From NCBI GenBank assembly GCA_030615625.1, contig JAUWYX010000005.1:1-64000 (forward strand): 64,000 nt of DNA. The letters are read 5' to 3'. The DNA comes from Dehalococcoidia bacterium (GTDB taxonomy: Bacteria; Chloroflexota; Dehalococcoidia; GIF9; AB-539-J10). The notes under the pieces are model-generated. The model worked only from the letters and a program-made list of their open reading frames with translations. It was not told the origin of the DNA and ran no database searches. The position numbers and the translations under genes are program-made. This document shows, piece by piece, positions 322 to 15,108 of the stretch. Every line of letters begins with the position of its first letter. Within the stretch, counting starts at the first letter, position 1.

Positions 322-430
322 AAGTTTGACTCTTAACCAAAGTTCACCATATACGCCTTTGATTTCGTGGTATCCTGGGGACATAATACCTGATTTGTAG
401 TAGGCCTGATTGGTATGGCGTCCCTGGAAT
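322..430 (+). repeat. R1 palindromic repeat, copy 1, with extended 5' flank
   Basis: R1 proper is 372-430: a 19-nt left arm starting ATCCTGGGGACATAATACC, a ~21-nt loop containing GTAGTAGGCC, and a right arm ending GTCCCTGGAAT. Most arm mismatches are G-T/G-U pairs on this strand, so the plus-strand form folds better. The preceding 50 bp (322-371) are shared only with the copy at 7680-7788, giving a ~109-bp direct repeat with about five mismatches. The repeat ends 16 bp from the hicA stop codon. Confidence 0.9.
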
Positions 431-445
431 TGGGTGAGGGTTTAT

Positions 446-3325: not shown

Positions 3326-3380
3326 GGCTTTTCCTTCCCTTTCAATATACCATAAGCCAACTAGTGGGTGCAGTCCAATT

Positions 3381-3439
3381 ATTCTGGGGAAATAATACCT
3401 AGTTTGTAGTAGGCCTAATTGGTATGGTGTCCCTGGAAT
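3381..3439 (+). repeat. R1 palindromic repeat, copy 5
   Basis: This is a full 59-bp copy (ATTCTGGGGAAATAATACC ... GTCCCTGGAAT) in the divergent spacer between the cyclophilin start and the next plus-strand gene. It lies inside the spurious upstream extension of the cyclophilin reading frame. Confidence 0.9.
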
Positions 3440-3507
3440 TCTACGCTTGAGCATGAAGATAAAAAGTGCTAATATATATCATTAGTTAACTGGAGGAGGG
3501 AAAGCGA

Positions 3508-4160: not shown

Positions 4161-5012
4161 GTGGCCTATTTCGATGTTCACACTCAAGAATCCCTAATAA
4201 GAAAATGGGCTCGTCAACTCAGAGCTGTTGTCGCAAGTGATCGTAGCCAAGTTCCCATAGCGTCGCTAGCGCAAGCTAGGGGCATAAGTCGTATTATTGA
4301 AATCCCTCTTCATTCTGATGGGCTTCTGGCACGTGACGGAAACGAGTTAGTTATATATCTCAATAAGCAACTGGGAGTAAGTCGTCAACGATTTACTTGT
4401 GCACATGAAATAGGCCACACTTATTTGGGAAACCCCTTGCTGAATGATTCGAGTACAAAAGGCGAAGTCGGTAAGGACAAGGGCTGCTATGTGGAATTCA
4501 CCCAGCAGAACAGCATCGATGAATATTTATGTGACATATTTGCAGTCGAACTTCTCATGCCAAGAGAAGCTGTAGAGTCACTGCTTAACCAATATGGAGC
4601 GTCCATTAGGTGTGTACAACGTATCTCGTCAATCTTTGGCGTCTCTCTCTCTGCAGCCGCTTGGCGTATGGCTGAACTAGATCGTGAGAATTTGGGCGTT
4701 ATTTGGTTCAAGAAGATGGGAAAGCCTAATTGTCCTGAGGACGTAAGACTGAGAGTTCACTGGGGTGTATTTCCACACCAACAACGGACCTATTTGCCGC
4801 GCTACGACTCAGCCAAGGCAGACTCCTTGGTTGTCAAATCCTTCCTATCAGGCCAAGTAGTTGAGGGGCCAGAGAAGATGGACATTGGTAGTGTTCGAGG
4901 CCTTAAACATCTTGTTTGTAAACGCTTCTACAATACAGTATTGTGCCTAGTGTTTGACAATGTACCAGCGTCACGCGTAACTGACTCCCACCTTAAGACT
5001 CTCCCTATTTAG
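4161..5012 (+). CDS. ImmA/IrrE-family zinc metallopeptidase
   Basis: The 283-residue protein has the zinc motif FTCAHEIGHTYLG (HExxH at about 82-86) followed by DEYLCDIFAVELLMP, the usual third-ligand helix of ImmA/IrrE (COG2856) peptidases. Members cleave phage or stress repressors, or serve as antitoxin-side domains. No N-terminal Xre helix-turn-helix is present; residues 1-45 are unassigned and the C-terminal 90 residues form a separate unassigned domain. The start is GTG 4161 after AAGGATTGATAA. It is likely co-transcribed with the deoxyribosyltransferase-like gene, so a repressor- or effector-controlled defence role is possible but inferred. Confidence 0.85.
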   Translation: MAYFDVHTQESLIRKWARQLRAVVASDRSQVPIASLAQARGISRIIEIPLHSDGLLARDGNELVIYLNKQLGVSRQRFTCAHEIGHTYLGNPLLNDSSTKGEVGKDKGCYVEFTQQNSIDEYLCDIFAVELLMPREAVESLLNQYGASIRCVQRISSIFGVSLSAAAWRMAELDRENLGVIWFKKMGKPNCPEDVRLRVHWGVFPHQQRTYLPRYDSAKADSLVVKSFLSGQVVEGPEKMDIGSVRGLKHLVCKRFYNTVLCLVFDNVPASRVTDSHLKTLPI

Positions 5013-5089: not shown

Positions 5090-5122
5090 TCGTGTTTGTA
5101 TATTGCACATCAGTTTCTAGGT

Positions 5123-5182
5123 ACTCTGGAGGACATAATACCTGATTTGTAGTAGGCCTAATTGATATGGTGTCCCTGGAAT
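5123..5182 (+). repeat. R1 palindromic repeat, copy 6
   Basis: This slightly diverged copy (ACTCTGGAGGACATAATACC ... TGATATGGTGTCCCTGGAAT) sits in the 346-bp gap between the ImmA and HAD genes. The remaining gap (5183-5358) includes GCATCTAACTGG-AAG-CGAAGT, a motif seen again near 13913; no gene is visible. Confidence 0.9.
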
Positions 5183-5358
5183 TCGGAACGCATCTAACTG
5201 GCCAAGGCGAAGTGAATATTCAGCCAGAAGGTTGACTATACGCCTGCGACGGGATTCTATTGTCAGGAAAGTTAGGCCTCATATTCGTCTGCCTCTGACT
5301 TAAACTTGGTGACTTGCCGTGCTAAGGTCACTACAGTATAATAACCGAAGGTGACACG

Positions 5359-7679: not shown

Positions 7680-7788
7680 AAGTTTGACTCTTAACCAAAG
7701 TTCACCATCTACGCCTTTGATTTCGTGGTATTCTGGGGGCATAATACCTGATTTGTAGTAGGCCTAATTGGTATGGTGTCCCTGGAAT
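7680..7788 (+). repeat. R1 palindromic repeat, copy 7, with extended 5' flank
   Basis: R1 proper is 7730-7788 (ATTCTGGGGGCATAATACC ... GTCCCTGGAAT). The 50-bp flank 7680-7729 repeats 322-371 almost exactly, so 322-430 and 7680-7788 form a long direct repeat around the whole 7.3-kb multi-unit segment. Confidence 0.9.
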
Positions 7789-7936
7789 TCTTGCTGCTAA
7801 CGATGATTATCTCTGCTAAGGTTTTTGACTTGAGGCAAAAATCTTGAATTCATAGTCGCGCCCAGCTGAGGAACAAGATATCTTCCCTCAAAAAATTCTG
7901 TAAGATCGATTGATTTAGACTACGACTAAAAAACTG

Positions 7937-7957
7937 AAATCTGTTTGCAACAGATTT
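7937..7957. promoter_or_regulatory. Candidate operator palindrome upstream of the GHKL operon
   Basis: AAATCTGTT, a 3-bp spacer TGC, and AACAGATTT form a perfect inverted repeat ending 9 bp before the -35 box. The surrounding 250 bp are AT-rich. The binding protein is unknown. Confidence 0.45.
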
Positions 7958-7966
7958 ATTGAAAAT

Positions 7967-7995
7967 TTGACAAATTTTGTGACTTAATTTATAAT
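7967..7995 (+). promoter_or_regulatory. Perfect-consensus sigma70 promoter of the GHKL operon
   Basis: TTGACA (7967-7972), a 17-bp spacer and TATAAT (7990-7995) match the consensus at all twelve positions. The predicted start near 8002 leaves a 46-nt leader containing AGGAGG before ATG 8048. Confidence 0.75.
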
Positions 7996-8047
7996 TTGAT
8001 TGTCAACAGAAATAAAATTGATTTACACATACTAGGAGGTAGCAATA

Positions 8048-8269
8048 ATGGGAAGATCAGAATCCAAAAGGGAAGCCTTTCAGCGTTTGGCAACTAAAAG
8101 AACTAATGGAGTCTTGGAGCGGCTTAGAATTTTAGAGCACTGTGCCAATCCTCAATTATATGACTATTCCCAAGATGACGTACGAAAAATATTCCGTGCA
8201 ATAGAGTCAGAGTTGCGGGCAGTTAAAGCAAGGTTCAGCAACTCCGCTCGGTCTGAATTTCAATTGTGA
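8048..8269 (+). CDS. Small helical protein of unknown function, first gene of the GHKL operon
   Basis: The 73-residue protein is predicted helical and basic: FQRLATKRTNGVLERLRILE, then the tyrosine-rich YDYSQDDVRKIFRAIESELR, then AVKARF. From memory, very similar short proteins (RLA-x-R-T-N-x-VL, EDVxKIFxAIExE) recur beside restriction-modification genes and ATPases in defence islands, without a known function. ATG 8048 is preceded by AGGAGGTAGCAATA. The ATPase gene follows after 30 bp on the same strand. It may be a regulator or small subunit of the system. Confidence 0.75.
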   Translation: MGRSESKREAFQRLATKRTNGVLERLRILEHCANPQLYDYSQDDVRKIFRAIESELRAVKARFSNSARSEFQL

Positions 8270-8282
8270 ATGTAGGAGATAA

Positions 8283-8306
8283 GTGAAACGAGTGCTAATA
8301 TGGTGA
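8283..8306 (+). other. Seven-codon leader ORF overlapping the ATPase start
   Basis: GTG 8283 sits 4 nt after AGGAG (8274-8278) and reads M-K-R-V-L-I-W then TGA (8304-8306). The stop overlaps the ATG (8300-8302) of the ATPase gene, which itself has no ribosome-binding site at a normal distance. Coupled translation through this mini-ORF would explain ATPase expression. It is too short to judge by coding statistics. Confidence 0.35.
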
Positions 8307-10756
8307 CGACCAGATATGTTCAAATGCCGCAGGATGACCTGGCTCAGATTGACCAGATCGTGAGGGAGTACTGCTCAGAGCCGGCAAAGGGTCTTGCTCA
8401 TGGCACTCAAAAAGATGCGACGCAGAATGCGGTTGGGGCGAGAGCAGACACGGATGAAAAGACGGCATTCAAAACCTGGCAGTTCCATTTCGAGCTACTA
8501 AAGATTAACGGAAGCGACGCACTGAGTTTCTGGGATGAAGGAACGCTGGGGCTGACAGGCGAACTGCTGACGGCAGATGAAATAATGGAAAGAATTGCAG
8601 CAGGCACCCTTGGTCCTGATCAGCGGTTATGCCGCTTTCTTGCCCGCTACGTGTCAGGCGCGAATGTCGGCCCTGGCATCTTCGGCAGAGGCAAGCTGAT
8701 ATTCCACGGAGCTTCCAGAACAACCAGCATCTTGGTTGACTCCAAGCGAAGCGACGACGGTATGTATATTGCTCTGGACCGCAGAATTATCGGCAACCGC
8801 TTAATGCAACCTGAGCTCCCCCACTGCGGAGAAGTGGCTGAAAAATTCATAGTTGAGCAGACTGGGGGAGTCCTCAAGCCGCTTAAAAATATAGGAACGA
8901 GAGTAACCATCCTGGACCTCGAACCGGAAGTTGCAGATGCATTCAAGCTGTCGTTCTCCTCTTCCTCAACAGCGTATCGCGCCTCTTTTGCCCATATGAT
9001 AGAAGAAACCTGGTGGGAAATAATTAAGTTCGGGGCAAGAATTTCGCTGAAATACGGCGGAAATACGCTTCAGGTCAGCCTGCATGAGCCGCTTAAGACC
9101 ATTATTACAGCGGCAGATGGGCAGGATGGCATTAGAGTTCATGACCCATCAAATATTCCGATTACTGCAGGCAACAAGCGCTACCGCATCAAGCAGCTTC
9201 GGCTGGTTGTCATGCCCAAACCTCTTGATGAGGAGTACCGAGAGATTTGGATCCAGCGAAAGAGAATGAAGATTGGGAGCATCTACCGCTATATTGATGT
9301 CCATCCAAAAATCAGTCAAAGGCTTGCCGGCTATATAATCTTGGAGCACGATCTTGAGGATCTTGTAGAGGAGGCAGAAGGCACGACACATTATGGATTC
9401 AATTTAAACAAGGCCGGAGTCAAACAGCTCAGGCAGGCACTGCGGGCAGAATTGAAAGAATTTGAGAACAAACTGGGGCTTATTCCCGTGAGCGAGGATG
9501 TAGCCTCACAAAAGCGGCTGTTTGATTCCATGAAAGAAATAAGTGAATATGCTCCTGAGCTTGGACTTATGACTCAGGAGAGCGTGGGGATCAGAAGGTC
9601 TGATGCAGAGATTATTGTGAGAAACTTAGGGCTGCTCAATGCTGGCACACTGCGGATTGAGTTTGAAGATAAGATAGGCCCAATTGATTACAGCCTAATC
9701 AGCACCGCTTCAACTTCTCTTATCGGGGTCTTCCGGGTTGAAGCGAAGCAGTACGGCCGACCATCAGTGCAGCTGTATGAGCGCAAATGCAACTTAGGGC
9801 CAAGTGGGAGCGCAGATATTTCGGTGTCCAAATTTGATGTAACCCACGATCGTTTTGAAGCAGGGAAGCCGCTGGACATTGTTGCTGTCTATTCTGATCC
9901 AGATACGGGGAAGAGGTTTGCTGCCCTAACCCGAAGGCTATATTTAGGGATGAATCCGCCCGAGCCTACGAAAAGCCCAGTCGAGCTCTCTGTAACATGC
10001 AGATTCCCGCGGAAGAAGACCAGGAGAGTTGAAATATCAGAAGTCATCAGGAACATAAGAGTAAAGGCGACCAATACGACTCCATCCGACTTGAAAGTTC
10101 GTTTAACTTCATCAGTGAGGCATGTAGAAAACAAAAAGACGGGAAGGCCGACAGCCCCCCTGTTTACTCTATTTGAAGAAAAAAGCATAGTGCTAAAAGG
10201 TCAAACTGACCACGTAGTCTATATTGATGATATCGATATCACGCCCGACAAGTTCTCCGGTGTTCACAATACAATAGCGTCAACCGGTGAACGGGCCTGC
10301 GACATCTTCACCACTGCTCGGCTGGCTGAGGACAGTCCAGAGCTGGAACTGCCCCGCGGGTGGACACTTGACAAGGTGTCCTTACCCTTCTATCTGGGAG
10401 TTGACCCGCCGGGGTTCAATATCTTCCGAGACTGCCAGCAGTCTGTTGCTCCCACAGATGGAAGACCTTCCTGGTATGACGGCAGTGCTGAAAGCGGCTA
10501 TACTTTCTATCTTAATGTGGGCCACTATAACTACTGCTTCATAGAGAGCAGAGGCGATGAAGCTATACTGGGGCAGTACGGGAAGGAGCAGATGCTCAGG
10601 CAGGCGTACCTGATTGCGTTCGAAAACGAGGTATTTAAGGGACCGGCTGCAGAGTTCAAGGACAAGCTGACGGCAACTGACTTGCCGTTTCGTGAAGCCG
10701 TAAGCATCTATGACCGCATTGTGGGGAATGCTCTAAATACAATAGGTAGGAGGTAG
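8300..10756 (+). CDS. GHKL (MORC/Hsp90-like) ATPase of a putative defence system
   Basis: The 818-residue protein has an N-terminal GHKL ATP-binding domain: N-box QKDATQNAVGARAD (Mg-binding Asn at about 43), G1 box FWDEGTLGLTG (Asp at about 79), G2-like lid FGRGKLIFHGASR (about 128-140) and G3 box GTRVTIL (about 199-205). A transducer-like region follows, then beta-rich segments (about 440-650) and a C-terminal helical part (YGKEQMLRQAYLIAFENEVF). No nuclease or helicase motif is evident. MORC-type GHKL ATPases are known in prokaryotic restriction-modification contexts. It shares an operon with the upstream small protein and downstream 263-aa protein, and faces a methyltransferase/glycosylase pair. 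Start ATG 8300; GTG 8303 is possible. Confidence 0.75.
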   Translation: MVTTRYVQMPQDDLAQIDQIVREYCSEPAKGLAHGTQKDATQNAVGARADTDEKTAFKTWQFHFELLKINGSDALSFWDEGTLGLTGELLTADEIMERIAAGTLGPDQRLCRFLARYVSGANVGPGIFGRGKLIFHGASRTTSILVDSKRSDDGMYIALDRRIIGNRLMQPELPHCGEVAEKFIVEQTGGVLKPLKNIGTRVTILDLEPEVADAFKLSFSSSSTAYRASFAHMIEETWWEIIKFGARISLKYGGNTLQVSLHEPLKTIITAADGQDGIRVHDPSNIPITAGNKRYRIKQLRLVVMPKPLDEEYREIWIQRKRMKIGSIYRYIDVHPKISQRLAGYIILEHDLEDLVEEAEGTTHYGFNLNKAGVKQLRQALRAELKEFENKLGLIPVSEDVASQKRLFDSMKEISEYAPELGLMTQESVGIRRSDAEIIVRNLGLLNAGTLRIEFEDKIGPIDYSLISTASTSLIGVFRVEAKQYGRPSVQLYERKCNLGPSGSADISVSKFDVTHDRFEAGKPLDIVAVYSDPDTGKRFAALTRRLYLGMNPPEPTKSPVELSVTCRFPRKKTRRVEISEVIRNIRVKATNTTPSDLKVRLTSSVRHVENKKTGRPTAPLFTLFEEKSIVLKGQTDHVVYIDDIDITPDKFSGVHNTIASTGERACDIFTTARLAEDSPELELPRGWTLDKVSLPFYLGVDPPGFNIFRDCQQSVAPTDGRPSWYDGSAESGYTFYLNVGHYNYCFIESRGDEAILGQYGKEQMLRQAYLIAFENEVFKGPAAEFKDKLTATDLPFREAVSIYDRIVGNALNTIGRR

Positions 10757-10758
10757 GC

Positions 10759-11550
10759 GTGACGGTACTCGTTCGAAAGGAGCCCGACAGAATATATCAA
10801 TCCCTTGGAAGCCTGGGGTCGACTGAGCAGGACCGGAGCAGGGCAGATAAGCTTGACCAGGTGCTTGAACAGCGGATAAAGCGGCTACTTAAGGATTTGA
10901 AAAAGAAAGGGCTGACACCCGAAAAAGCTGGAAAGGGTAGCACGACAGCCTACTGGGAAGTGGGCAGAGTCCTGCATGGCGTGGCAGATAACGAGAAGCT
11001 GCTTGACAAGGCAGAACTGCCTTTGTTCTGGCAGAATGCAAAGATATACATTCCTGGTGAACTACTTTACAGAGATCGGGGTCCTTATCGAGAACACCTC
11101 TGGTACTGCTACCGACTTGGTGGCTACCCAAAAGAGCTCGTGGACAAGATGAGTTGGGGCGAATGGGTAACAATATTTGACTCTACAGGGATTAACCAGG
11201 AGATTCGGTTTGACGGATGGTTCAAATCTAAGCTGTCTGAGCAGCAAGAGCACATAGGACGAAGCTGGATCCGCACGTTCGCTCCATGCATTAATGTGAT
11301 GCTCGGCAATATCTATACGCCTGATTTATCGGAGACAGAGCTGTTCTCCTGCTACGAAGCAGCTTGGCAGATTGTGGCAGAAGCACACATCCTGAGGGAG
11401 AAGCATGGCGGCAAAGTTGCCAATTTGGTAGAAAGAAGAGAACTGCAGGCCAGTATTAAATCCAATATGGGGCTTTTAGGCGGTGTAATGGACGGCACTT
11501 TGTTACCAGGCGAATATGTCTGCAGAATCTTGGCTGACGCTAGTGAGTAG
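10759..11550 (+). CDS. Unknown 263-aa protein, partner of the GHKL ATPase
   Basis: The GTG start at 10759 is 2 bp after the ATPase stop, with AGGAGG upstream, so the two genes are tightly coupled. Visible features are a charged N-terminal helix (LEQRIKRLLKDLKKKGL), TTAYWEVGRVLHG (weakly reminiscent of YWEIGR in the DUF1016/YhcG N-terminal domain), aromatic-rich LWYCYRLGGYP, MSWGEWVTIFD, and a helical C-terminus. No PD-(D/E)xK, HNH or phospholipase D nuclease motif could be found. Its 3' end overlaps the convergent glycosylase gene by 11 bp. It may be a DNA-binding or adaptor subunit; function is not assigned. Confidence 0.65.
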   Translation: MTVLVRKEPDRIYQSLGSLGSTEQDRSRADKLDQVLEQRIKRLLKDLKKKGLTPEKAGKGSTTAYWEVGRVLHGVADNEKLLDKAELPLFWQNAKIYIPGELLYRDRGPYREHLWYCYRLGGYPKELVDKMSWGEWVTIFDSTGINQEIRFDGWFKSKLSEQQEHIGRSWIRTFAPCINVMLGNIYTPDLSETELFSCYEAAWQIVAEAHILREKHGGKVANLVERRELQASIKSNMGLLGGVMDGTLLPGEYVCRILADASE

Positions 11551-12232
11551 AGAAATGTCGGCAATGTTCCGCACATACACACTCCGAACACTTGGGATTG
11601 TAGTGTGTGCAGACTAGTGCGCAGAAATCGATGAGGGCATAATTCCAGTCCCGGCAGTCTGTTACCTTTCGTGGGAGCAGACTGTACGCGATATTCCAAA
11701 ACTCTGGGTCTGTCCGGGCTCTTGACCGCTGTGACTGCACTCCAAAAAAGTGCTCTAAGATGCGTACAACGTTTGTGTCCACAACGGCTGTCCTCGTGCG
11801 AAAAGCGGCACTAAGCACAGCATTAACAATATATCTTCCTACGCCTGGTAGCTCCATAAGCTCAGCTTCTGAATTAGGAATATATCCTGCGAACTTGTCG
11901 TTAATATCTTTAGCAATATTGATGAGCCTCTGAGTTCTATAATTAAGCCCTATTCTGGAGATAAATCTCTGGATGTCTTCTTGCTCAGCCTCTGCTAATG
12001 CTGAAGCGTCAGGATAGCGCTGTATGAACTCCGGGTAAATGAGAGACACCTTATTGGCATCCGTCTGCTGAAGCAAGATCTCAGCTATAAGTATGCAGTA
12101 GGGATTTTCAGTTTCCCTCCATGCAAGGCTACGCTTATTTCGGCCGAACCAACTGATGATTTGCCTGCGAAAGAAGTGCTTGGTATGGGCTGAAATTCCT
12201 TTGAACTGCTGGACTGCACCTAATTCCGTCAT
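11540..12232 (-). CDS. HhH-GPD mismatch DNA glycosylase (MIG/MutY-like, Fe-S)
   Basis: The 230-residue protein is an EndoIII-superfamily base-excision glycosylase. The helix-hairpin-helix is LMELPGVGRYIVNAV (about 126-139), the catalytic Asp lies in VVDTNVVRIL (about 152), and the 4Fe-4S loop is C-x6-C-x2-C-x5-C (Cys 208, 215, 218, 224). The position of the EndoIII catalytic Lys is Tyr (about 134), as in the archaeal T:G glycosylase MIG, and MutY's C-terminal 8-oxoG domain is absent. It should remove T from T:G mismatches formed by deamination of 5-methylcytosine. Its ATG abuts the methyltransferase TAG with no gap (GGAG upstream), so the two are coupled. Confidence 0.85.
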   Translation of the reverse strand: MTELGAVQQFKGISAHTKHFFRRQIISWFGRNKRSLAWRETENPYCILIAEILLQQTDANKVSLIYPEFIQRYPDASALAEAEQEDIQRFISRIGLNYRTQRLINIAKDINDKFAGYIPNSEAELMELPGVGRYIVNAVLSAAFRTRTAVVDTNVVRILEHFFGVQSQRSRARTDPEFWNIAYSLLPRKVTDCRDWNYALIDFCALVCTHYNPKCSECVCAEHCRHFSTH

Positions 12233-13354
12233 CTACATCTCCAGCATCCTTCGCACCGATTTTGCAACCGCTCTGGCAAGAAGCGGAGGAACGGCATTTG
12301 CCACCTGTTGTTGCTGATGCAAAATGCCCCCGCAGAATATAAAGTCATCTTGGAACGACTGGAGCCTAGCTGCTTCTCTGACTGACAGGCCTCGATTCTC
12401 ACGAGGATGAATCAGCATACTCTTGCGGAAGTTGGTTATGGTGGCAGCTGGCTTGTTCTCAGGCAGCCTGTGGTAGATCCGCTGATGGCAACGTTCCTTA
12501 TTCGTGTAGTTGTTCATCAATTCATCGGGAATGTCACGCCAGTTCCCGCCTTGCGGTATGAAAGAGTAGCGCTTTATGACAAGGTCGTTGTTTCTGGTTA
12601 CCAGGTTGTTCCGAACCAGCGTGTTTCCCCCTTTCCGCATTTTCCTTTGATAATCGGTTAAGTTTACATTAGACCCGTAGGGCATTTCGTCAATTGTATT
12701 ACCGTTTGCCAGCGGCGGAAGATCTGATATAGCATCCCAAATAGAAACAAATTTGGCGGGGTCGGTTATTTCCGAATTCGGGAACTGTACATGGGTCTTG
12801 TAACAAGTTCCTATGAAGAAAACCCGCCTCCTTTTTTGGGGGACTCCGAAATTTACAGCGTTGAGTACGGCTACATCAACCGCATAACCAATACAGCGAA
12901 AGAGAGCTATTATATCATCAACAACTTCACCATTTGCAAATACTGCTAAATCGGCGACATTTTCGATAACAATTATCTTTGGCTTATATGCGTCCACGAT
13001 GCTTACAAACTGCTGGAAGAGCTCATTGTCAGAATTATTCCTGTTGCGGGTACGCATGTTTGCTCGCGAAAATCCTTGGCATGGAGGGCCGCCTACAACG
13101 ACATCAACAGCCTCAATACCCTCGGCGTGCAGTTTGGCGATTACCTCTACAGTGTTTCGCAGGTCATCATTAATAACCTTGGTCCGGCATTTCTTCCAGT
13201 GCGTGTGATTGCATCTCTGAGTCTCGGCCGCAGTTTTGTTTTTCTCTACCGAAGCAGCAACATGAAAACCTGCCATGATGAAACCTTCAGACAGCCCACC
13301 GGCTCCTGAAAAGAGGTCTATTGCGACAGGCTTCTGATTAATTTTGTTGACCAT
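12233..13354 (-). CDS. DNA (cytosine-5-)-methyltransferase
   Basis: All main C5-methyltransferase motifs are present in order: I (AIDLFSGAGGLSEGF), IV (VVGGPPCQGFSRAN with the catalytic Cys), VI (IVIENVADL), VIII (QKRRRVFFIG), a target-recognition region of ~100 residues, IX-like ARLQSFQDDFIF, and X (QQVANAVPPLLARAVA). It methylates cytosine C5 at a specific site that cannot be predicted here. The frame opens at 13423, but the promoter lies there; the start was placed at the second ATG of a pair (13357/13354) 4 nt after GGGAGGG. No cognate restriction enzyme is recognised nearby. It is coupled to the glycosylase downstream. Confidence 0.95.
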   Translation of the reverse strand: MVNKINQKPVAIDLFSGAGGLSEGFIMAGFHVAASVEKNKTAAETQRCNHTHWKKCRTKVINDDLRNTVEVIAKLHAEGIEAVDVVVGGPPCQGFSRANMRTRNRNNSDNELFQQFVSIVDAYKPKIIVIENVADLAVFANGEVVDDIIALFRCIGYAVDVAVLNAVNFGVPQKRRRVFFIGTCYKTHVQFPNSEITDPAKFVSIWDAISDLPPLANGNTIDEMPYGSNVNLTDYQRKMRKGGNTLVRNNLVTRNNDLVIKRYSFIPQGGNWRDIPDELMNNYTNKERCHQRIYHRLPENKPAATITNFRKSMLIHPRENRGLSVREAARLQSFQDDFIFCGGILHQQQQVANAVPPLLARAVAKSVRRMLEM

Positions 13355-13394
13355 CATCCCTCCCGTAATACAACTACCTCTGTCCTTTGGTAGC

Positions 13395-13423
13395 AGCATA
13401 GCAGCATAAAATCGCATTGTCAA
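13395..13423 (-). promoter_or_regulatory. Promoter of the methyltransferase-glycosylase operon
   Basis: On the minus strand TTGACA (13423-13418), a 17-bp spacer and TATGCT (13400-13395) form a good sigma70 promoter, with a start near 13388 about 34 nt before the chosen ATG. This rules out the upstream in-frame ATG at 13423. Confidence 0.6.
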
Positions 13424-14685: not shown

Positions 14686-15108
14686 ATGATTAAGGATACA
14701 AGCAAGGGAACATGGGGTGGCAGGCATAACTGGAAAGGCGGAAGGTACCAAAGAAAAGACGGCTATATTCAGATATGGATTGAATCGGATGACTTCTTCT
14801 TCCCAATGGTTCTTAGACGACGAACCTATGGTGGTTATGTGCTGGAACATCGCCTTGTGATGGCTAAGCACCTTGGAAGGTGTTTGCATCCTTGGGAGAT
14901 TGTCCATCACAAAAATCAACCCAGGGATGATAACCGAATTGAAAACTTAGAGATTCTGTCTGACTTGGGTCATAAGCAACTCACTAAATATGAAAGATAT
15001 GTCGAAAGGCTATTAAATCGGATTCGGGCGTTAGAAACAGAAATAAGGTCTTACAGAAATGAAAAAATCCCCGACAAAAGTCGGGGTGAAATCGCCTGGA
15101 AGCCATGA
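14686..15108 (+). CDS. HNH endonuclease (HNH_3 type, homing-like)
   Basis: The 140-residue protein has an N-terminal strand-rich part (KDGYIQIWI, GGYVLEHRLVMAKHLGR) and the HNH core: EHR, then WEIVHHKNQPRDDNRIENLE with the HH pair and Asn. This matches free-standing HNH_3 endonucleases of phages and selfish elements. A coiled C-terminal helix (YERYVERLLNRIRALETEI) follows. The gene sits in the opposite orientation between two halves of ORF6N-like coding sequence, as if inserted. Its last codons overlap a minus-strand intrinsic terminator. The promoter suggests translation without a leader. Confidence 0.85.
   Translation: MIKDTSKGTWGGRHNWKGGRYQRKDGYIQIWIESDDFFFPMVLRRRTYGGYVLEHRLVMAKHLGRCLHPWEIVHHKNQPRDDNRIENLEILSDLGHKQLTKYERYVERLLNRIRALETEIRSYRNEKIPDKSRGEIAWKP
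15061..15086 (-). terminator. Intrinsic terminator for minus-strand transcription
   Basis: CCCCGAC (15069-15075), loop AAAA, GTCGGGG (15080-15086) form a perfect 7-bp GC-rich stem. On the minus strand it is followed by ATTTTTTC. It lies about 40 bp after the TAA at 15125 of the minus-strand ORF6N-containing fragment and inside the 3' end of the HNH gene. Confidence 0.65.

What the first reader, a model, noticed from the sequence alone, without database searches (positions are those of the whole stretch)
7937..13423. Candidate defence island: GHKL ATPase module facing a C5-methyltransferase/T:G glycosylase module
A small helical protein, an 818-aa GHKL ATPase and an unknown 263-aa partner form one operon; a cytosine-C5 methyltransferase and an Fe-S HhH glycosylase form the convergent one, overlapping by 11 bp. 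MORC-type GHKL ATPases occur in prokaryotic restriction-modification contexts, but no restriction nuclease or helicase is recognisable here, and a MIG-like glycosylase replaces the usual Vsr-type repair enzyme. The nuclease may be hidden in the 263-aa protein, or restriction may proceed without classical cleavage.
Basis: partly seen in the sequence, partly recalled or inferred. Interest (0 to 1): 0.75.

Follow-up and report, generated by a model that had tools for sequence, protein, structure and literature searches.

The report
Nuclease-free MORC-like restriction-modification candidate
Five neighbouring genes in a Dehalococcoidia bacterium most likely form one DNA-methylation-gated defence system in which a MORC-like ATPase, an unknown helical partner and a tiny companion protein stand where the restriction nuclease should be, next to a cytosine methyltransferase and a repair enzyme that protects its methylated sites.

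Summary
The five genes are real. The small one runs 8048-8269 (73 aa); 7937 is only the start of an operator-like palindrome before a perfect sigma-70 promoter. They belong together: two genomes of other families carry the same genes on one strand with overlapping ends (L041: all five; L007: four, small gene missing). The ATPases and partners linked to the methyltransferase form one side of a well-supported branch; the other branch has the first three genes and no adjacent methyltransferase. The 818-aa protein has the GHKL ATP-binding motifs, though with Asp for the catalytic Glu. Its low-confidence model matches the SMCHD1 ATPase module, it lacks the MORC signature, and it has the invariant ExxxH of paraMORC2. 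The glycosylase is closest to the T:G enzyme Mig. No nuclease or helicase shows in any of the three loci. The small protein is a finding of its own: relatives in several phyla and an archaeal bin almost always lie just upstream of diverse GHKL ATPases, often in defence neighbourhoods. Most likely this is a paraMORC-type restriction-modification variant with a Mig-type repair gene and an unidentified effector. Restriction itself is inferred, not shown.

The parts
7937..7957 (+). operator-like perfect inverted repeat AAATCTGTT-TGC-AACAGATTT
   Evidence: palindromes also overlap the -35 (7962-7978); regulatory role inferred
7967..7995 (+). promoter TTGACA-17-TATAAT of the three-gene unit
   Evidence: 2 matches in the window against 0.05 expected; TTGAC(A)-17/18-TAnnnT also upstream of the small gene in L008, L009, L010, L014
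8048..8269 (+). 73-aa small helical companion protein
   Evidence: relatives almost always just upstream of GHKL ATPases
8300..10756 (+). 818-aa paraMORC2-like GHKL ATPase: GHKL+S5 module about 10-419, Ig-like beta-sandwich about 430-550, unresolved C-terminal extension
10759..11550 (+). 263-aa all-helical partner, unknown fold, co-conserved with the ATPase
11540..12232 (-). 230-aa MIG-like Fe-S HhH-GPD (T:G) DNA glycosylase
12233..13357 (-). C5-cytosine DNA methyltransferase (frame open to 13423); the only PF00145 gene found in this genome
13395..13423 (-). promoter-like TTGACA-17-TATGCT for methyltransferase and glycosylase
   Evidence: 10 of 12 matches, consensus match only

Best explanation
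One methylation-gated (restriction-modification-like) defence system. The C5 methyltransferase marks self DNA. The MIG-like glycosylase removes thymine from T:G mismatches that arise when the methylated cytosines deaminate, the job Vsr does elsewhere. The paraMORC2-like GHKL ATPase, the helical partner and the small companion form the effector that acts on unmethylated incoming DNA: ATP-driven dimer closure clamps DNA, and either an unrecognised catalytic site or a host nuclease cuts it, or the clamp alone blocks it. The small gene is transcribed first from a strong promoter with an operator-like palindrome and probably regulates or assembles the ATPase. Shown: gene content, conservation as a unit, ATPase motifs, kinship of the glycosylase with Mig. 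Inferred: complex formation, methylation gating, anti-phage action.
For: L041 holds small-ATPase-partner-methyltransferase-glycosylase as one operon with overlapping ends; L007 holds the same minus the small gene. The C5 methyltransferase is the only one found in G000, G080 and G493 and lies in this unit in each. Methyltransferase-linked ATPases and partners form one side of a branch (99/99 and 100/99). paraMORC kinship: GHKL motifs and invariant ExxxH, hhalign 89%, E 2.2e-6 over 276 columns to the L017/L020/L016 family, members of which lie beside C5 methyltransferase, Vsr and REase genes (EcoRII-C in L020). PMC2292703 places paraMORCs in RM systems with cytosine methylases and Vsr. Glycosylase best PDB match 1kea (Mig), E 3.5e-39; MIG-like genes beside C5 methyltransferases on Methanothermobacter, Thermus, Caldicellulosiruptor and Haloplanus plasmids. 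GHKL-Shedu VcSduA, a paraMORC3 type, is anti-phage and needs its ATPase (PMC12137116). Sister genomes carry other defence-type genes (GmrSD_N; PLD nuclease + N6/N4 methyltransferase) upstream of the same argH neighbourhood.
Against: No nuclease or helicase found. The catalytic Glu of the GHKL N-box is Asp in the window and in 6 of the 7 homologues aligned with it. At least six related loci (L008, L009, L010, L014, L036, L049) have the first three genes without an adjacent methyltransferase, and four genomes with the trio have no PF00145 gene at all (three of these under 92% complete), so methylation cannot be required by the whole family. Structure models are poor (mean pLDDT 42.5 and 48.2). 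No functional data.
Confidence: 0.62

Rival explanations
1. The three-gene module (small, ATPase, partner) is a self-contained defence or toxin-antitoxin-like unit that does not read methylation; methyltransferase and glycosylase were added later as an accessory in one branch.
For: Trio-only loci L008, L009, L010, L014, L036, L049; no PF00145 gene in G016, G017, G056, G216; the small gene comes first behind a strong promoter with an operator-like palindrome, an arrangement compatible with a regulator or antitoxin.
Against: Methyltransferase-linked ATPases and partners form their own branch and the partner has a C-terminal extension there; other small-protein/GHKL loci also sit beside methyltransferases.
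Confidence: 0.2
2. A sub-version of the best explanation: classical restriction with a nuclease site hidden in the 263-aa partner or in the C-terminal part of the ATPase.
For: Known R-M systems have a cutting effector; paraMORC3 proteins carry one C-terminally (PMC2292703).
Against: No nuclease profile in Pfam, NCBIfam, PADLOC; the nine invariant residues of the partner do not form a known nuclease motif; the window's C-terminal extension of the ATPase is missing from homologues. Structure prediction gave no usable model, so this is open.
Confidence: 0.25
3. The glycosylase is the restriction effector (base-excision restriction, as with the PabI family).
For: Restriction glycosylases exist (PMC4357717, PMC10273834).
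Against: It is Mig/MutY-like, with Tyr and Asp of Mig and non-MutY specificity residues; on pFV1 and in Caldicellulosiruptor such a gene accompanies a methyltransferase plus a separate endonuclease.
Confidence: 0.05
4. Two unrelated cassettes that happen to converge in a variable region.
For: Convergent arrangement in the window; variable region.
Against: Same gene set in one operon in L007 and L041, found without searching for a methyltransferase or glycosylase.
Confidence: 0.05

Closest known systems
paraMORC2 family GHKL ATPases in R-M neighbourhoods (Iyer, Abhiman, Aravind 2008, PMC2292703)
   Same: GHKL + S5 architecture, ExxxH near the end of the S5 region, no MORC motif, C5 methylase beside it
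   Different: No SFII helicase or RE-fold endonuclease; MIG-like glycosylase instead of Vsr; two further conserved partners (73 aa, about 200-263 aa)
small/GHKL/third-protein loci of Arthrobacter, Paenarthrobacter and Deinococcus plasmids (L020, L017, L016)
   Same: Small companion, ExxxH GHKL ATPase, third gene, beside C5 methyltransferase and Vsr or a type II REase
   Different: Third protein shows no visible similarity to the partner, an extra DUF6339 gene in L017 and L020, REase or NOV_C protein present
MIG of Methanothermobacter plasmid pFV1 (Mig.MthI)
   Same: Fe-S HhH-GPD glycosylase near a C5 methyltransferase, same key residues
   Different: The restriction partner there is an NgoPII-type endonuclease, not a GHKL ATPase
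VcSduA (GHKL-Shedu, paraMORC3)
   Same: GHKL ATPase as part of an anti-phage effector
   Different: Carries its own DUF4263 nuclease; single protein; no methyltransferase
SMCHD1 / eukaryotic MORC ATPases
   Same: ATPase module matches the SMCHD1 ATPase (Z 11.8, rmsd 5.2, 299 residues; low-confidence model)
   Different: No MORC motif; no SMC hinge recognised

Membership tests
GHKL ATPase | N-box Asn, DxGxxG, GxxGxGK, GT motifs | tested here: met
   invariant in 8 homologues (T200 is Ser in L041); N-box Asn and two glycines also aligned across 20 small-associated ATPases
GHKL ATPase | catalytic Glu four residues before the N-box Asn | tested here: not met
   Asp in the window and most homologues, Glu only in L010; a conservative change, activity unknown
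prokaryotic MORC proper | GhXhhpXXRhl motif in the S5 domain | tested here: not met
   absent in all 8; the same test finds it in the L045 ATPase
paraMORC2 | ExxxH in the C-terminal part of the S5 domain | tested here: met
   E360/H364 invariant in 8, aligned with the ExxxH of the L017/L020 family
paraMORC2 | S5 domain after GHKL | tested here: inconclusive
   SMCHD1 ATPase match over residues 10-419, but the model has mean pLDDT 42.5
paraMORC2 | clusters in a tree with the published paraMORC2 sequences | not tested
   the published sequences were not at hand
paraMORC3 / GHKL-Shedu | C-terminal RE-fold nuclease | tested here: inconclusive
   no nuclease profile found; fold of the C-terminus not resolved
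Type II R-M system | cognate DNA methyltransferase | tested here: met
   PF00145, E 2.2e-60; motifs I, IV, VI, VIII and X readable in the sequence
Type II R-M system | restriction endonuclease | tested here: inconclusive
   none recognised within the three gene sets
Mig-type T:G glycosylase | catalytic Asp and Tyr126-equivalent; non-MutY residues at the V45 and Q182 positions | tested here: met
   window: Asp, Tyr, Ala, Tyr (last one Leu in L007 and L041)
Mig-type T:G glycosylase | T:G mismatch glycosylase activity | not testable with these tools
   needs an assay

The most novel reading that the evidence does not exclude
A restriction-modification system without a restriction nuclease: a MORC-like ATPase with its helical partner clamps or compacts unmethylated invading DNA and silences it, as eukaryotic MORC proteins do to transposons, with a 73-aa protein that is a common cofactor of GHKL ATPases across prokaryotic defence loci.
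Probability: 0.17. Interest if true: 0.88.

Novelty: new variant of a known kind. Interest (0 to 1): 0.64.

Why it matters
paraMORC ATPases were predicted to work in R-M systems in 2008, and of the paraMORC-type proteins in the papers read here only the GHKL-Shedu type has been tested. A compact five-gene set without helicase or recognisable nuclease lets one ask directly what the MORC-like ATPase does to unmethylated DNA, and whether MORC-type silencing began as bacterial self/non-self discrimination. The 73-aa companion, not found in Pfam, NCBIfam or PADLOC, is a simple sequence handle for finding further GHKL-based defence loci.

Tried and rejected
DUF1016_N/YhcG-like fold for the 263-aa partner, suggested by a visual similarity: no Pfam hit in any of 10 members, and no DUF1016_N gene in 40 relatives to build a profile from. 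Structure of the partner: AlphaFold mean pLDDT 48, all helical, no Foldseek match below E 1. PDB sequence profiles for ATPase and partner: nothing meaningful. HNH gene at 14686 as the missing nuclease: not in L007 or L041. Phage and plasmid tblastn for the ATPase (window, L010, L041 against plasmids; L008 against phages): no match. Viral contigs: none with A1, one marginal partial match with L041, not followed. The first genome-contig scan with the ATPase alone found nothing. The operator palindrome was not found upstream of the methyltransferase.
Full report
Observation. The five genes are present. Then follow the 818-aa protein (8300-10756) and the 263-aa protein (10759-11550). Convergent to them lie the 230-aa HhH-GPD glycosylase (11540-12232, 11-bp overlap confirmed) and the C5 methyltransferase (12233-13423 as a frame, probably starting at 13357 or 13354). 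Pfam names only the glycosylase and the methyltransferase. PADLOC adds that the glycosylase matches a profile called type II nicking endonuclease and the methyltransferase type II profiles.

The genes belong together. A search of 84 genomes of the order with the 818-aa protein found distant homologues in four other genomes, five loci in all. Most carry the same trio: a 73-77-aa protein, the ATPase (about 600-670 aa) and a helical partner (194-229 aa). One of them, L007 (family f2), continues on the same strand into a C5 methyltransferase and an HhH-GPD glycosylase; it lacks the small gene. A search with the small protein in 393 genomes of the class brought in L041 (family f110): small, ATPase, partner, methyltransferase and glycosylase on one strand, each overlapping the next. 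Neither locus was sought by methyltransferase or glycosylase, so the linkage is not a product of the search. In G000, G080 and G493 the C5 methyltransferase of this unit is the only PF00145 gene found; four genomes with the trio alone (G016, G017, G056, G216) have none, though only G216 of these is more than 95% complete. In trees of the ATPase and of the partner, the three methyltransferase-linked loci form one side of a branch supported 99/99 and 100/99; with window and L010 on long branches, this shows clustering, not a dated origin. So there are two types: a five-gene type and a trio type. Between 0.5% (phylum sample) and 7% (relatives) of genomes have a homologue, which speaks against a housekeeping role. 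The methyltransferases of L007 and L041 differ clearly from that of the window, as expected if target sites are exchanged.

The ATPase. Eight homologues share N43, D79, G81, G84, G126, G129, G131 and G199 (window numbering), the GHKL motifs; the catalytic Glu position is Asp in seven of eight, so activity must be tested. The AlphaFold model is poor (mean pLDDT 42.5), yet VIA-align places residues 10-419 on the SMCHD1 ATPase module (Z 11.8, rmsd 5.2, 299 residues) and 429-550 on Ig-like beta-sandwiches (Z about 12). The motif that defines MORC proper is absent in all eight, while the ExxxH that Iyer et al. (PMC2292703) give for paraMORC2 is invariant. A profile comparison with the ATPase family of L017, L020 and L016 gives 89% probability, E 2.2e-6 over 276 columns, with both ExxxH motifs aligned. 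That family lies beside C5 methyltransferase and Vsr (L016, L020) or a type II restriction endonuclease (L017, L020; EcoRII-C in L020). Hence 'paraMORC2-like'.

The partner. Ten homologues have nine invariant residues, K59, G69, L72, D77, G100, L120, W136, S191 and L195, which do not form a nuclease signature known to me. No profile or fold match was found. It could be a DNA-binding or sensing subunit; this is inference. The methyltransferase-linked partners carry a C-terminal extension that the trio type lacks.

The glycosylase. Its best solved relative is Mig of Methanothermobacter (1kea, E 3.5e-39), ahead of MutY; for the L041 homologue MutY structures score slightly better than 1kea, so the diagnostic residues matter. 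At the two positions that set adenine specificity in MutY (V45, Q182) the window has Ala and Tyr; L007 has Ala and Leu exactly as in Mig, L041 has Ser and Leu; Tyr126 and the catalytic Asp are kept (PMC2714593). MIG-like genes lie next to or near C5 methyltransferases on plasmids of Methanothermobacter (with an NgoPII-type endonuclease), Caldicellulosiruptor (with a PLD-type endonuclease), Thermus, and Haloplanus. On the Haloplanus plasmid the third gene is a GHKL ATPase (HATPase_c_3, E 3.8e-19) with a C-terminal region that looks nuclease-like by eye. This independent archaeal case supports the reading methyltransferase + Mig + GHKL effector.

The small protein. It has no family in Pfam, NCBIfam or PADLOC. 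Its relatives occur in Chloroflexota, Patescibacteria, WOR-3, Actinomycetota, Pseudomonadota, Deinococcota and a Micrarchaeota bin. I aligned the ATPases next to 20 such genes: all keep the N-box Asn and two GHKL glycines, and 10 match HATPase_c_3. Contexts include a bona fide MORC with a trypsin-like protease (L045), an ATP-binding protein plus UvrD pair resembling Gabija (L018, L019), N6/N4 methyltransferases (L034), and hits to MzaB, TmtA and REase_II profiles. Two exceptions were seen: L015 (viral contig) and L022 (weak hit). The contexts were read from loci fetched by sequence similarity, not counted in a full database.

Setting. Relatives in the same genus share the argH neighbourhood to the right, but left of about 15.6 kb they carry other genes, among them a GmrSD_N protein (L078) or a PLD nuclease with an N6/N4 methyltransferase (L080). 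The locus therefore lies in a variable region that in relatives holds defence-type genes. The class is Dehalococcoidia: contigs of G016, G017 and G216 agree in length with records titled Dehalococcoidia or Dehalococcoidales.

Mechanism. Most likely the methyltransferase marks self, Mig-type repair guards the marked sites, and ATPase, partner and small protein act on unmethylated DNA. GHKL-Shedu (VcSduA) shows that a GHKL ATPase can drive anti-phage action (PMC12137116); there the nuclease is known. Here it is not. Either a site is hidden, or a host nuclease is used, or DNA is clamped and compacted without cutting, as reported for human MORC2 (PMC12216690, title and abstract only). Nothing in hand decides between these. 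The trio-only loci in genomes without a C5 methyltransferase show that methylation is not needed by the whole family.

Novelty. The kind (paraMORC ATPase in an R-M neighbourhood) was described in 2008. The variant - no helicase, no recognised nuclease, Mig in place of Vsr, two conserved unknown partners - was not found in the papers searched; the library covers open-licence papers only.

Noticed in passing
window 367-432, 1029-1071, 1466-1515, 2598-2663, 3380-3441, 5119-5184, 7725-7791: Dispersed repeat of about 65 bp, up to about 90% identical to many copies in relatives (L078, L080); partly palindromic in some copies.
   Followed up: partly
L045:3213-6304: The small protein stands before a GHKL ATPase with the true MORC motif (GFNLYRYKRLI) and a trypsin-like protease gene, in a Colwellbacteria bin.
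   Followed up: partly
L018:8034-13306 and L019:7986-14727: Small protein + GHKL ATPase + ATP-binding protein + UvrD helicase on Agrobacterium and Dinoroseobacter plasmids (in L019 with a 461-aa gene between): a Gabija-like pair with a GHKL add-on.
   Followed up: no
L065:7989-12241: Haloplanus (archaeal) plasmid with MIG-like glycosylase, C5 methyltransferase and GHKL ATPase in a row, beside a Pycsar effector gene.
   Followed up: partly
window 14686-15108: HNH_3-type endonuclease gene near the methyltransferase; not conserved in the homologous loci.
   Followed up: partly
window 4161-5012: ImmA/IrrE-type peptidase (M78) with a capP profile hit, in the same variable region.
   Followed up: no
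L036:8448-10255: The ATPase gene of this trio is split into two frames (247 and 348 aa), so this copy may be broken or carry a sequencing error.
   Followed up: no
L041:4775-5479: The glycosylase has His in place of the second Fe-S Cys.
   Followed up: no
L016:8219-10117: The GHKL gene on the Deinococcus plasmid is annotated with a start that is too late; the frame is open from 8219.
   Followed up: yes
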